From contig OX438742.1 of assembly GCA_949316235.1 (NCBI GenBank), positions 38,632,853-38,696,852 on the forward strand: a DNA stretch of 64,000 bases, in the 5' to 3' direction. Shown piece by piece: positions 2,492 through 48,000 of this stretch. The notes under the pieces are model-generated. The model saw only the letters and a program-made list of their open reading frames with translations, had not been told where the DNA came from and made no database searches. The translations under genes and the position numbers were made by a program. Source of the stretch: Oegoconia quadripuncta. Its lineage: Eukaryota > Arthropoda > Insecta > Lepidoptera > Autostichidae. Each line of letters opens with the position of its first letter. Within the stretch, counting starts at the first letter, position 1.

Positions 2492-2567
2492 TGGGACCGA
2501 GGGAGGGTTTGTGCCCAGTACTTACTGGGCACAAACCTTCCCTCGGTCCCACTTACTTAAGTGGGAC
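2492..2567 (+). repeat. paired hairpins with identical ACTT loops
   Basis: Arm 2492-2519, loop ACTT 2520-2523, inverted arm 2524-2551 (27 of 28 bases match); then arm 2546-2554, loop ACTT 2555-2558, arm 2559-2567 (9 of 9). The inner arms overlap by GTCCCA. Confidence 0.95.
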
Positions 2568-2639
2568 AGTTAAAGACTGATAATGTAGGTAATGATTTTA
2601 TGACGATAACTTACAAAGGTTACTGACATGAAAATATTA

Positions 2640-42000: not shown

Positions 42001-45000
42001 AGTCACGCGGCTGCGATCTGTTTTTCATTATGGTCTTGCATGGATGAAGCACTAAAAATTTTAACTCGCTGTACCTATCATTCAGAAAGTCACACGTCTA
42101 CAAAAAATATCATCGTCTGCCTGTACGAACTAGAAAGAGTTTAAAAATTACAGCCAGGCGGGTTGACAGTAAGAGCCTCGCACCAATGGCTCTGCTGACC
42201 ATGATTGTACATGCAGTTACGATTAAGCGCATCCCTATGACTTCCACTGGAAAGAGTGGTTTGGTCCAATTGTTTTCTGTCGGCACATTAAGTGCGACTT
42301 GCAATTTACCGCGGCGACTGGATTCCATGGATTTGTGTCGATAACGTAATATGAATTTTGTTTCAGGCCAGAGTTAGTGCGGCCCGGACGAGATTGTTCG
42401 CCTATCAGTGGAGTTGCAACAAGCGTTATAAGAGTTTCCCCGGGGCCCACTTACCATTACCAGGTATTTGACGTCATTAAGTGTGTCTATATCTATAATT
42501 TATGTATCTAAATTGGTGCTAACATACAATCATTTTAGGTGGACAACCGCAACGGGCCCGTCTCGCTTCACTCTAACGGTAGCGTCCAGCCAAATCTAAT
42601 GGTCGCACACCAGCCATCGCTTAACATACCGAGCAGCATACAAGCCAGCCTGAACTCGTCGATTCATTCCGGCCTTGCCCTACTGTCGAGTAACCCGTTA
42701 AATCTTAATAACATGAATCAAAATATGCAACCAAGTATGCCAACGAGTATGCCAACGAGCATGCCACCAAGTATGCCCACGAGTATCCCCAACACGATCC
42801 GCCACACTAAAATGGACGACTTACCCCACAACTTGGTGGTACAACGAAACATTCCAGCATCGAACGGGATCGACATCGATCATCTTTACCGCAGCCAACC
42901 ACCGCTGCACCTCAGGAATGGTATGCACGACGCGTACCGTCGAGACATTGAACTGTCGCCCCCTCTCCATAGCCATGAAAATTTTGTCCATAGACGAGTC
43001 TCGGAGTATGAGGAAGAAGATCATTCTGTGCCTCAAAGAGATAATATACACCACTTAATTGAATCCCGTCAACTAGACCTATCCGAGACTCGCGTACATG
43101 ACGACAAGAGGATTGTAAAGCCCGCGCCGTTGCAGGCGCGTTTCCTGTCCGTGGTCGATGCGGACGCCAAGGAGACCATAAAGAGATTCTACGTAATACC
43201 GCAGAATATCGAGAATAAGTTCGTGCTAGTTAAAAACGAGCCTATTGAAGCTATTCAGGTGAGCTTTTTACTAACATCAATGTTTTATGTTTATATTATC
43301 TATGACCGTGTGAATACAGACATATTTCATCAAGCATTGCAAATAGCAATGGTGTAAGGGATAATTATCTGGGAGCATTGTCTTGTCTGAGAGGTTACAG
43401 AATAATTTCTAAGTTACTAAACTCAGTTAAATAGTGTGCCTGCTTGCACTTTTACTTACACAAATAAACTAGCTCATTTAATGTTTTATCAACCGTTGAC
43501 TTCTAGTTTCCACTGTGACAGCATGTTGAGTGTGCTCTACTTTCAGATCGAACAAAAGGCGCACCATTTCGCTCAACATATGAACCACAACGAACCGGAG
43601 ATGGATCACCGTATTCATGACAATGGCGATCATGTGCGTACTACTGCATTTCTTAACCTTATCCCTCATCCCATAGGTGTGAAAAATGATTAAAGAATCA
43701 TAATTCAAATAATGGTTATGACACGTTACACTGTACACGGTTTTACACTATTTGATTCGTATTCGTAACACAGATCAGAAGTTGCCGTCACAAAATTCGT
43801 AATAGGTTTGTGTATTGAATTCAATGCCATTTATATTTTTATTATATAAAATCCTTTTTTTACAAAACATTCGATTTGTTTTAGGCATCAAAAGTCGGGA
43901 CAAAGTGTGGTTAGACTAGAAATGTCAGATGTAAATTGCTTTTCTCCACCTTCTCTCATACATTTCTTAGTAATTAGTCACGTATTATATTTTTTAAATT
44001 AACCAGTAGCGTCCTATAAACACAATCTAATAAAAAAATCTTATTTCATTAATCATGAGTGCTCGAGTTGATTACCGTCTTGATTGCATTGAATCACTAT
44101 GTTCCGCAATTTAGCAAATAACTGATATTTTAGTTGAATTCAAGTCTGAACGTAAATTACGCGAACAAAATCGATATACTTATGTAGTGGGGTTATTCTT
44201 ACTCGTCGTACGGATGTAAAGAGGCTATACTAACTCGTATATTGCAATTCTCTTTTATGTTTCTACGAATCGAAAACTAATTGAATTCCATACATAAATA
44301 CATAATGTCACGCCTGTTTCTGTAGGGGTGGGCAAAGACCACAGACTTCCATAAGGTTGTTTATACATGCTTGTTGGTTTAGGGTACTCTTGACTTGGCC
44401 TTTCTTTAAGACGTCCCCGATTTGATCATGGTACGTTCGCCGTGGTAATTCCCTACCAACACTACCATCCACATTGGCTTTCGCATACCTTTTTCAATCT
44501 TTGTCACAACGTCTTCATTCACTCTGCTTAACTCCCTAATTACACTATTCCTGTTCTATCTTTCAAAGTCATCCCACTTTTACTTCTCAATGAATTCCAG
44601 TGTTAGAAAAATTAATCCTTGCCCCGGTGAGTACGTTAAGCTAATGCTAACGTAATATTTGGAAGATCGCCGTGGCTCCAATTCCTATATAACAGTAAAC
44701 TTCAGTATATTATAGGTTTTGCCCCTGATGACGTGTTCACGATTATGGATTAGATTATTATCAGTGTACGTAGAGCTCAGATTAAGGTTTTTTTTTCTAA
44801 CAAAGATAAACACGATGTCAAGAGTCATATCTATAAAATGCGTTTCCGAAGTGCCAAAGTATCGTAAACACCTAATAATTAAGTGACACAATTAACGATT
44901 GCGGTATCAGTTCTTAATAATAGCTCTAACTATAGATTAAGAAGTAAAACAAAATAGCTTACATGTTTACCAAACGTACCTTTTCTCCATTGCACGTGGT

Positions 45001-48000
45001 ATTTTGTATTATATCGTGTAATTGATAAGGGATGATCTTTCGGCAGTTGAATAGCAGCGCGGTGATTGTGCGGCCGAGTCAGTTACTGCCTGTGTTGCCG
45101 CCGCCGACTTCACACACCGCCATCATCGGTGAGTTTGTCTATAAAGACATCCTTACAAATGCTTACAATAATGTAAGCATTTGTAAGGATAACATTGCAG
45201 TTTTAGTAGTCAGTTTTAATTCGCTTAGGCTTATTGCAAACACCAGTTGAGGACCGCGTGTTACGATTGGTTTGTGGTAGGGAATTTTTAAATCCGCCTG
45301 ACCTAAGCTATACATGTGTTCCTGCTGTTTGAGATAAGATCACATCTCCAAATAAGTTAGGGGTTGGGCTTCATATTCACTTAACGTTAGTTGTGATTGA
45401 GGTCAAGCGCTAATCCATTAGCTACAAGGAATGTCGCAAGTTCGTTTGGATCCTGCCTGATGTTAAGTGAAAATCGAGTTACAATCCTCCTGACTGTCGT
45501 CTTTCAAACATTAACTATAATATTACAATACAAGGAATGGGGTTCATAGTATTAGGCTTAAAAATGGTGTACCTACAAGTTTTTTTTTTAAACCAATTTC
45601 CATCCAGCAGTTTCGACAAGCGGCGTCAACGGCGGCGTATTCCCGTGGCAGACACTAGTGCCGCTACTGGCGGCCGCGTCCCCACCTCCCGGCGCGCCCC
45701 CCGCCCCGCCCTCCCCACGGACCCCTCGCACTCCCCGTACTCCGCACACCCCGCAAACCCCGCACACGCCGCACTACAAGATGGATGAGCACATCAAGGC
45801 AGAGGCGCATGGTAAGTCTTTATAATGCGTCGTGTCAACATCAAAAAGGCAGGAACAATTCCAGTCTTGGTTCTCAAAGAACAAATTTTGACTATCAGAT
45901 GACGCCTCGCGCTAATCCCGTTGTTCTCGTTGAGAATTTTACAAAACCTTTTTCCTAAGTAAAAAGGGACACTAGGATGTATTAATAGATACAAAAAAAA
46001 TAATTTTGTTACATCATAATTCCACATACCATTACAAATTATTGAATTTCAATTTCGTGATTCTGCTCCTATAAGTTTGGAAACTTATAGGAACATTCCC
46101 TATAAGTTTGGAAACTTAAAAATTGTCGGACTTTATATGCATTGATCTAGTAATTGATATAAGAGGGTTTATTCTGTCCAGTGACGCCCTTGGATAAACT
46201 GAATTAATAAATGTGATATCAACCAACCTCCATGTCCACAGACGCTCACGTCACAATGTGCGTAGACGACGATGACGAAGTGTTCGAGTGCGAGGAGCCT
46301 GCCGGCGTCTGCCCGGAGGACAGCGCCAAGCGACGCTCGCAGAGCCTGTCCGCTCTCAACCAGGGCCCCGGCGTCGACAAGGTAAGAATAACATAACATA
46401 CATATGCTCACGCCTGTTTCCCGATGGCAGAGACTTGGGGGAAGGGAATGGGTTCAACTGTTAACAGGAAATGCACAACTTTTCAATTTTATTATACAGG
46501 ACATTTGGGTCGCCTGATACAGACTTTACGGCGACGAAGCCTTTGGGACTTATTGTATATTTTTAACATCTATTACGATGCTGTAGACAACATAGGACAG
46601 CAGAGGTCGGATGTCACTTAGGATTTTTAGAACACATTTTTATAAATAAATAAATGAAACACCTATTGTGTATTGTAATTTTTGTCCTATATTTGTTCAA
46701 TGTATGTGTTAAAATAAATTTAACCTGTTCCATGGATACTAAATTTCTTTGTGTCGATGAGTGTATTTCACTGATTTGTCAGTAGAATCCTCGGAAATAA
46801 AAACTTCTTGAAAATTTTACTGGACTCTTTTTATATTTTTTTTCCTAGAAGGAGCGTCGCATTAGGCGTCCAATGAACGCGTTCATGATATTCTCGAAGC
46901 GTCACCGCCAAATGGTGCATCAGCTACATCCCAATCAGGACAATCGCACTGTCAGCAAGATCCTGGGCGAGTGGTGGTACTCGCTCAAGCCCGAGGAGAA
47001 ACAGAAGTACAATGAACTCGCGAGTGAGGTTAGTGAACGTCGACAATAAGCCTATATCATTTTATGGCTTCATCATCATCATATCAATCACAGGAACAGG
47101 AACGTCTAGTGCTGAACATAGGCCTCACCATTTCCAGCGCGATCGCTTGGAAACTGTCTGCGACGACTTTTGTTCTTCTACAGTTGTCTTTATCCTGATT
47201 CGATCTCGTAGTGAAACACGTAGTTCGTATTGGATAGATTGGCTTCTGTTTTTAAAGATTTAAAGATAAGTGAATACTATTTTCTCCCTTCCATCTTTAC
47301 AATAATTTGTAATTATTTTAAAAACTCCTGCCAATGCGTGCCTGTGAATGTGATTCTTGAGCAAGATACGGTCACGATTAGACCAGCTTCTCTCATTCGA
47401 CGACCGATTGGTGTAGTGGATAGTGACCCTATCAGCGAAACCAACGGTTGCGGGTTCGAATCCCGCGACGGGTTTGTGTGATGAATATGAACATTTATTC
47501 CTGAGTCATGGGTGTTTATATAAATATTTATGTATGTTTATCCGTTATCTAGTATCCATAGTACAAGCTTTGCTTAGTTTGGGACTAGATGATTGGTGTA
47601 AGTGTCCGAAATATTTATTTATTTATTTATGAAAAACGATGCAAATCGGAAAGCAGCGGACATTTCTATAATGGCGACGATGATGAGTTATTTCAATTAC
47701 GAATATTTCACCACAGACAATGAAACAAAATATTTTATAATCATAGGTGAAGGAAGCTCACTTCAAGGCACACCCGGAGTGGAAATGGTGCAACAAAGAT
47801 CGCAGGAAGTCGTCCAGTAGCCGGGACCCGACCGGGTCTATGCCACAGGTAAGTGAACTAAGCTATGTTAAATCAAAATACGATTTGGAATTTATAATAC
47901 GATATAATAAGGACGACCAGCAACTCTGACCACTATACCAAAAGGTTTGCGGGTTCGAATCCCACTAGGGGCATATGTTTGTGTGATGAATACGGACACG

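What the first reader, a model, noticed from the sequence alone, without database searches (positions are those of the whole stretch)
2492..45190. A recurring scar: paired hairpins that share an identical 4-nt loop, at four loci
At 2492-2567, 6385-6449, 25388-25470 and 45136-45190 the sequence has two adjacent hairpins whose 4-nt loops are the same within each locus (ACTT, CTAC, AAGA, ATAA) but differ between loci. Written out: left flank, tetramer, inverted left flank, inverted right flank, tetramer, right flank. The tetramer behaves like a target duplication, and the insert (24-41 bp) is made of inverted copies of both flanks, not of foreign DNA. Ligated hairpin ends would put the tetramer on one side and its complement on the other, so they do not fit. 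Fill-in of a 4-nt 5' overhang followed by snap-back copying on both ends and end-joining does fit, with short junction homology at two loci (GTCCCA, TATTTA). Topoisomerase II leaves 4-nt 5' overhangs and is one candidate source; polymerase theta-type repair is a candidate for the copying. I know of no described name for this pattern.
Basis: partly seen in the sequence, partly recalled or inferred. Interest (0 to 1): 0.86.

Follow-up and report, generated by a model that had tools for sequence, protein, structure and literature searches.

The report
Inverted-tetramer double-hairpin break scars
An animal genome carries small scars in which a broken site was re-joined as two neighbouring hairpins with the same four-letter loop, and where this can be checked the loop is the flipped version of the four letters once there, as if both broken ends had been sealed into hairpins and then nicked open.

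Summary
All four loci are real, and the pattern recurs elsewhere in the genome: in a 290-kb sample outside the window, adjacent 4-nt-loop hairpins have equal loops in 8 of 38 pairs (two of the 8 weak), against 0.08 equal pairs per simulated sample. No loop-4 pair there has reverse-complement loops; loops of 5-8 nt give no equal pair, loop 3 gives 2 of 29.

Three scars outside the window have unscarred copies of the same site in this genome. Each shows that the loop is the REVERSE COMPLEMENT of the original tetramer: AACT became AGTT, AGGG became CCCT, TAAT became ATTA. The rule is L-T-R -> L-T'-l'-r'-T'-R, replacing T.

The capping enzyme is not identified (topoisomerase II mis-religation and transposase/integrase 'foldback' reversal are candidates). 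No empty site was found for the four window loci. The nearest described scars that I saw differ in anatomy.

The parts
2492..2519 (+). Locus 1, L arm (left flank copied)
2520..2523 (+). Locus 1, first loop ACTT (inferred original tetramer AAGT)
   Evidence: inversion inferred from other loci
2524..2551 (-). Locus 1, L' (inverted copy of left flank); 2546-2551 GTCCCA shared with R'
2546..2554 (-). Locus 1, R' (inverted copy of right flank)
2555..2558 (+). Locus 1, second loop ACTT
2559..2567 (+). Locus 1, R arm
6385..6405 (+). Locus 2, L arm
6406..6409 (+). Locus 2, first loop CTAC (inferred original GTAG)
   Evidence: inversion inferred from other loci
6410..6430 (-). Locus 2, L' (1 mismatch)
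6432..6438 (-). Locus 2, R'
6439..6442 (+). Locus 2, second loop CTAC
6443..6449 (+). Locus 2, R arm
25388..25407 (+). Locus 3, L arm
25408..25411 (+). Locus 3, first loop AAGA (inferred original TCTT)
   Evidence: inversion inferred from other loci
25412..25431 (-). Locus 3, L' (20 bp, perfect)
25432..25434 (.). Locus 3, 3-nt filler between L' and R'
25435..25452 (-). Locus 3, R' (18 bp, 1 mismatch)
25453..25456 (+). Locus 3, second loop AAGA
25457..25474 (+). Locus 3, R arm
45136..45140 (+). Locus 4, L arm (5 bp)
45141..45144 (+). Locus 4, first loop ATAA (inferred original TTAT)
   Evidence: inversion inferred from other loci
45145..45149 (-). Locus 4, L'
45149..45167 (-). Locus 4, R' (19 bp, perfect)
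45168..45171 (+). Locus 4, second loop ATAA
45172..45190 (+). Locus 4, R arm
46067..46118 (+). Possible fifth locus, loops TGGA; not a clean member (second half reads as a copy of L+loop+R)

Best explanation
Each locus is the healed scar of one two-ended DNA break with a 4-nt stagger. Starting from L-T-R, the two strands are cut 4 nt apart. Each end closes on itself: the recessed 3'-OH is joined to the 5' end of its own overhang, giving hairpin caps L-T'-L' and R'-T-R whose loop is exactly the 4-nt overhang. Both caps are nicked in the stem on the 3' side of the loop (the 5'-ending strand of each break end), about 3 to 34 nt inside, leaving 3' tails T'-l' and T-r. The tails pair through 0-6 nt of microhomology, are filled in and sealed, giving L-T'-l'-r'-T'-R. 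Shown: the anatomy, its recurrence, the loop length of 4, equal and never complementary loops, the inversion relative to empty sites at three loci, and the junction homology. Inferred: covalent capping, the nick and its side, and the enzymes. The capping enzyme could be topoisomerase II re-ligating within one end, or a transposase/integrase with a 4-bp stagger doing a foldback reversal; the nick would be of the Mre11-complex or Artemis type.
For: Equal pairs concentrate at loop size 4: 12 of 51 loop-4 pairs in the 354 kb (4.7 kb masked) are equal and 0 reverse-complement; loop 3 gives 2 of 34, loop 5 0 of 23, loop 6 2 of 67, loop 7 0 of 25, loop 8 1 of 46 (the 6- and 8-nt pairs in the window are the same loci read one or two bases wider). 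No complementary loop-4 pairs, so both caps are opened with one polarity. L and R ends are not complementary in 9 of 13 loci, so closure needs no pairing, as ligation of an overhang would. Best-fit inverted arms cover 328 of 333 inserted positions, 12 mismatched; junction overlap P about 0.002. MRX-Sae2 endonuclease acts on hairpin caps with 4-nt loops in yeast, and clipping 25-40 nt from ends is described (PMC11341764, passages). A foldback pseudo-disintegration is named for Mu transpososomes (PMC5357137, passages).
Against: No empty site is known for the four window loci, so the inversion is carried over from other loci. Two of the three informative scars are small (arms 4+11 and 3+5); only L023 is large, and its single empty copy has a separate deletion just upstream, leaving about 11 nt of L beside the tetramer. 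In the relaxed scan (374 weak loop-4 candidates, 47 with spanning copies) most are direct (32), 9 other, 4 palindromic, 2 inverse; direct also dominates at loops 2 and 3 (446 of 663, 132 of 190), and I read it as background of tandem repeats and shifted gaps, not checked one by one. In one search, of 6 candidates with spanning copies 2 are inverse, L006:7635 is ambiguous, 2 have self-complementary tetramers, and L009:6818 (a short tandem repeat) shows one direct copy. L006:7635 (loop ATCT) has copies AGTT, GGTT, AGCA: one mismatch from the inverse at best, two from the direct form. Nick distances exceed Artemis cuts (apex or 2-4 nt on either side of it, so no fixed polarity; PMC13041557 passage), and many are below 25-40 nt; one search also mentions incision right next to small loops. 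No significant cut-site consensus (P 0.07-0.08, 13 loci). No excess of simple 4-bp duplications. A 3'-overhang break opened on the 5' side gives the same product.
Confidence: 0.66

Rival explanations
1. Two coupled template switches at a replication fork: the nascent strand at the end of L jumps 4 nt ahead onto the other strand, copies T' l' backwards, jumps to the right flank, copies r' T', and returns at R.
For: Gives the observed inverted tetramer and arm sizes; template-switch mutations are proposed to make perfect hairpins, and 4 nt is the commonest loop length in that paper's hairpin table (PMC8794818 passages); junction homology.
Against: Needs two mirror-image switches with a 4-nt offset at one tetramer every time; other loop sizes have 0 of 49 equal-loop partners.
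Confidence: 0.15
2. One reading: 4-nt 5' overhang, fill-in to a direct tetramer duplication, snap-back copying at both ends, end joining.
For: Explains equal loops, inverted flanks and the junction homology at the window loci.
Against: Predicts that empty sites carry the loop tetramer itself; 3 of 3 clean empty sites carry its reverse complement. No primer pairing at the loop in 9 of 13 loci.
Confidence: 0.03
3. Excision footprint of a transposon with a 4-bp target duplication whose transposase hairpins the flanks across the duplication (occupied site L-T-[TE]-T-R), with the caps then opened and joined as above.
For: Same final product; flank hairpins are known for hAT and RAG-type enzymes (recalled); several scars lie in or near repeats.
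Against: No occupied allele seen (not searched for); the known flank-hairpin enzymes are recalled as making nearly loop-free hairpins and 5- or 8-bp duplications.
Confidence: 0.13
4. Chance, or selected RNA/DNA hairpins unrelated to a break.
For: Hairpins are common; strong ones with other loop sizes occur singly in the sample.
Against: 8 equal pairs of 38 against 0.08 simulated, and zero complementary loop-4 pairs; arm sequences differ from locus to locus.
Confidence: 0.01

Closest known systems
V(D)J coding joints with P nucleotides (hairpin ends opened by Artemis)
   Same: Hairpin-capped ends on both sides; opening off the tip contributes inverted flank bases; end joining (PMC13041557 passages)
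   Different: RAG hairpins carry no 4-nt loop and P tracts are short (recalled); here a 4-nt inverted loop, arms of 3-34 nt and unrelated sites
Local foldback inversions at HO breaks in yeast (PMC11724301: abstract, one results section and discussion read)
   Same: Short inverted flank copies, mostly about 5-34 bp, joined by NHEJ or alt-EJ with 0-5 bp microhomology
   Different: One end, primed by a pre-existing inverted 10-bp microhomology with a 41-nt loop; here both ends, 4-nt loop, mostly no priming homology
Small inverted triplications of FEN1/rad27 mutants (PMC13334657, passages)
   Same: Two inverted junctions, short breakpoint homology
   Different: DUP-INV-DUP of about 150 bp with spacers of about 30 bp; here two different flanks each copied once and one tetramer inverted
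Template-switch mutations making hairpins (PMC8794818, passages)
   Same: Hairpins from one event
   Different: The passages seen describe single hairpins, not pairs with equal loops
Telomere resolvase / protelomerase reaction (recalled; search listing only)
   Same: Staggered cut refolded into two hairpin ends
   Different: Specific palindromic sites and stable linear replicons; here unrelated sites, re-joined, no such enzyme sought
Mu 'foldback' pseudo-disintegration (PMC5357137, passages)
   Same: Off-pathway strand-transfer reversal of that name; that it leaves hairpinned target ends is my recollection
   Different: In vitro, phage Mu; no link to this genome shown
Topoisomerase II duplications (Stantial 2020, seen only as a reference; not held)
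   Same: A short stagger-sized change, 4 bp as recalled
   Different: Direct duplication by end joining (recalled); no inverted flanks

Membership tests
Transposon / target-site duplication | Direct repeat of the original target tetramer on both sides | tested here: not met
   Tetramer is the reverse complement of the empty site in 3 of 3 clean cases, none of them in the window
Transposon / target-site duplication | Foreign or repeated insert between the repeats | tested here: not met
   Insert is inverted flank: 316 of 328 best-fit arm positions match, 5 filler bases, 12 scars
V(D)J-like hairpin joint (P nucleotides) | Inverted flank bases adjoining both joined ends | tested here: met
V(D)J-like hairpin joint (P nucleotides) | Recombination signal sequence and RAG-type nuclease | not tested
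   No significant consensus within 10 nt of 13 sites; no search for RAG genes made
V(D)J-like hairpin joint (P nucleotides) | Loop-free hairpin tip (recalled) | tested here: not met
   Paired scars have 4-nt loops
Foldback inversion primed by inverted microhomology | Pre-existing complementarity between the 3' end and its template at the loop | tested here: not met
   m = 0 in 9 of 13 loci; 1, 1, 2 and 6 in the others
Small inverted triplication | DUP-INV-DUP of one segment | tested here: not met
   L and R differ and each is copied once at 12 of 13 loci; locus 46067-46118 resembles it
Template-switch hairpin | Inverted copy with inverted loop from one event | tested here: inconclusive
   Each half fits; the paired, 4-nt form is not explained
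Telomere-resolvase-like reaction | Hairpin loop equal to the cut stagger, both ends capped | tested here: inconclusive
   Product fits; no enzyme or intermediate examined

The most novel reading that the evidence does not exclude
An enzyme active in this animal's germ line cuts DNA with a 4-nt stagger at many sites and seals both ends as hairpins (a resolvase-like side reaction of topoisomerase II, or of a mobile-element integrase). Hairpin-capped breaks would then be a routine, heritable source of mutation, leaving of the order of ten thousand double-hairpin scars in one genome (extrapolated from 8 in 290 kb), with each nick distance and joint readable.
Probability: 0.35. Interest if true: 0.9.

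Novelty: new variant of a known kind. Interest (0 to 1): 0.76.

Why it matters
Hairpin-capped breaks are studied in lymphocytes, yeast mutants and cancer; evidence that they form and heal again and again in a germ line is new to me. The scar keeps the cut position, the stagger, the opening side, the nick distance on each end and the joining homology, so it can be counted in any genome and used to ask which enzyme makes such ends. It would also be a one-step source of perfect hairpins, and it shows that a four-base 'target duplication' can be an inversion.

Tried and rejected
Topoisomerase II check by 4-bp duplications: one search seemed to show an excess (18 at 4 bp, 4 at 3 bp), but listing them (19 rows at 4 bp, 7 at 3 bp) showed that most 4-bp rows come from a few shared ancestral changes (about four contexts by eye); no support. 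Cut-site consensus: not significant. Locus 46067-46118 kept apart as unclean. Not counted as scars: L008:7698-7780, L025:5677-5715 and L017:5705-5731 (the last two are among the 8 equal pairs), and L007:655-685 (AT repeat). Empty sites: window locus 1, only itself and its own arm; window locus 2, copies of a neighbouring young repeat only; L018, most copies end before the right flank and none shown spans it. Window loci 3 and 4 and L027 got no answered genome-wide search; L006:3276 and L012 were not tried; within the sample none of these had an empty copy, and L027's AATT is self-complementary and could not show orientation. In one search the C20 paralogue differs at the break by other changes and was not used. 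Pfam on 10 ORFs gave DUF4819 above cut-off and a few sub-threshold matches. Paper searches for a description of this scar; none of the listed titles and opening abstracts describes it.

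
Full report
WHAT IS THERE. The four loci read as described. At each, a strong hairpin with a 4-nt loop abuts a second hairpin with the same loop. 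In the window, every hairpin listed with a perfect stem of 11 bp or more (loops of 2-11 nt) belongs to one of these four loci or to a fifth place, 46067-46118. The fifth place has equal loops (TGGA), but its second half reads as a copy of L+loop+R and its flanks are complementary over 6 bp, so I leave it out of the clean set.

IS IT MORE THAN CHANCE. With the two tandem arrays removed, the window has 5 equal, 0 reverse-complement and 2 other adjacent loop-4 pairs at one fixed threshold; 1598 order-2 Markov simulations of 56 kb of it gave a mean of 0.003 equal pairs and never more than 1. The window lies in a 622.6-Mb, 45-contig assembly. I took 29 ten-kilobase stretches at positions of my choice on twenty contigs. 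In these 290 kb, loop-4 pairs are equal in 8 of 38, with 0 reverse-complement, against a simulated mean of 0.08 (12 simulations, maximum 1); two of the 8 (L025, L017) are weak and not counted as scars. Loops of 5, 6, 7 and 8 nt give 0 equal of 19, 43, 25 and 30, and loop 3 gives 2 of 29; a 100-kb E. coli K-12 plus phage T4 control gives 0 of 10 at loop 4. Counted per hairpin (290 kb plus window), 12 of 22 with 4-nt loops have an equal-loop partner and 0 of 49 with loops of 3 or 5-12 nt do; one of the 12 (L008) is weak and one is the unclean fifth place. Over the whole 354 kb (4.7 kb masked), 12 of 51 loop-4 pairs are equal and none reverse-complement; loop 3 gives 2 of 34, loop 6 2 of 67 and loop 8 1 of 46, the 6- and 8-nt ones in the window being the same loci read wider. 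With looser settings and the arrays left in, loops of 3, 5 and 7 nt give some equal and complementary pairs.

SCARS OUTSIDE THE WINDOW. L006:3255-3313 (GTAG), L012:3928-3962 (TAGA), L018:3978-4061 (ATCA), L023:7898-8021 (ATTA, arms of 27 and 32 bp), L027:1479-1555 (AATT, decayed), L007:9831-9865 (AGTT), a small one in L004 near 5112 (CCCT) and a decayed one in L006 near 7635 (ATCT). That is eight in 290 kb, one per 36 kb; extended to 622 Mb this is of the order of ten thousand, an extrapolation from a small sample in which the last two were found only through looser criteria.

THE DECISIVE OBSERVATION. Three scars have clean, orientable empty paralogues. L004: the scar has CCCT; copies read AGGG (23) and ten copies of five other kinds (same cap); strict 9 of 13 AGGG, the other four one-base variants, no CCCT. 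L023: the scar has ATTA; a copy on contig 14 (93% and 96% identical in two pieces) reads GTATACC-TAAT-ATATACC with no insert, though a separate deletion upstream leaves only about 11 nt of L there. In all three the loop is the reverse complement of the original tetramer. A fourth, L006:7635, is ambiguous: copies read AGTT, GGTT or AGCA and the loop's inverse is AGAT. So the event is L-T-R -> L-T'-l'-r'-T'-R, and T is replaced, not duplicated. For the window loci no empty site was found (for locus 1, for locus 2; loci 3 and 4 could not be searched genome-wide because the machine stayed busy), so there the inversion is inferred.

RESULTS THAT CUT THE OTHER WAY. L007 and L004 are small scars (arms 4+11 and 3+5). 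In one search, 35 loop-4 candidates were tested and 6 had spanning copies: 2 inverse, 1 ambiguous (L006:7635), 2 with self-complementary tetramers, and L009:6818, a short tandem repeat with one direct copy. In the much looser, 47 of 374 weak loop-4 candidates had clean spanning copies: 32 direct, 9 other, 4 palindromic, 2 inverse. Direct also dominates at loop 2 (446 of 663) and loop 3 (132 of 190), so I take it as the background of tandem repeats and shifted gaps; I did not inspect these one by one. Inverse calls at other loop sizes were 3 of 663 (one of them L007 read narrower) and 2 of 190, and none at loops 5-8. One further copy of the L007 repeat (L029:4930-5060) has, at the same position, a long one-sided hairpin with loop AGTA and no repeat sequence on the right; it is unexplained.

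MECHANISM. A 4-nt staggered cut with 5' overhangs leaves, on the left, a recessed L-3'OH beside the overhang 5'-T'. If both are nicked on the 3' side of the loop, the left tail is T'-l' and the right tail, on the other strand, is T-r, whose complement is r'-T': the product carries T' twice, as observed. The zero count of complementary loop-4 pairs says the opening polarity is the same at both ends. Best-fit inverted arms cover 328 of 333 inserted positions, 12 of them mismatched, over 12 scars. Arms run from 3 to 34 nt. Junction overlaps sum to 18 over nine filler-free junctions, P about 0.002 against random joints; three junctions with 1-3 nt of filler were set aside. L-end and R-start are not complementary in 9 of 13 loci, so there is usually no primer for a snap-back.

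ENZYMES (inferred). Two chemistries give a cap whose loop equals the stagger: topoisomerase II, which holds 4-nt 5' overhangs (recalled), re-ligating within one end; and a DDE integrase or transposase with a 4-bp stagger in a 'foldback' reversal, a term used for Mu (PMC5357137, two passages read; that it hairpins the target is recalled). A weak symmetric site preference is not significant (P 0.07-0.08, 13 loci) and there is no excess of 4-bp duplications, so the source is open. Opening by a Mre11-type nuclease is plausible: MRX-Sae2 endonuclease is needed for hairpins with 4-nt loops in yeast, and clipping 25-40 nt from ends is described, though the same text allows incision right beside the loop (PMC11341764, passages). 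Artemis cuts at the apex or 2-4 nt 5' or 3' of it (PMC13041557, passage), which neither reaches 34 nt nor fixes a side. The same product would follow from 3' overhangs opened on the 5' side.

RELATION TO KNOWN SYSTEMS. It works like a coding joint with long P nucleotides, but with a 4-nt loop, and I do not file it as V(D)J. It fails tests for target duplication, primed foldback inversion (PMC11724301, abstract and two sections read) and small inverted triplication (PMC13334657, passages). A survey of perfect inverted repeats reports that in eukaryotes zero-length spacers predominate (PMC13155455, passages); paired loops did not come up in the passages seen. A double template switch is the chief rival. 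Ten full-text searches listed no paper whose title or opening abstract describes this scar; the library holds open-licence papers only.

LIMITS. One assembly, no named organism, no relatives, 354 kb read, three empty sites. The source looks lepidopteran from the repeat ends, which is recall and not tested.

Noticed in passing
window from about 6472 to at least 6700: Start of a very young repeat (about 97-98% identical; 2195 first-look candidates, 40 scored) about 30 bp right of scar locus 2; it contains its own imperfect hairpin (6554-6595), also seen in the copy at L030:1423-1836.
   Followed up: partly
window 12119-12994 and 15435-19115: Long degenerate minisatellite with units like TTCGCAAAATGACAG, in two blocks.
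   Followed up: no
window 20422-21183: Open exon-like ORF with Pfam DUF4819 (E 1.1e-12); linking it to Capicua is recalled.
   Followed up: no
window 46067-46118: Two equal-loop (TGGA) hairpins formed by a near-direct duplication, a possible product of a related event at a site that was already a small hairpin.
   Followed up: partly
L029:4930-5060: Copy of the repeat of scar L007 with, at the same position, a long one-sided hairpin (loop AGTA) and no repeat sequence to its right; unexplained.
   Followed up: partly
L009:6116-6164 and L012:1347-1396: Single strong hairpins with 6-7-nt loops that share the motif TTGGGACGT in one arm; possibly a palindromic element family.
   Followed up: no
L012:8312-8360: Hairpin GGTACAGGGTG-ATTA-CACCCTGTACC followed by a second direct copy of the right arm.
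   Followed up: no
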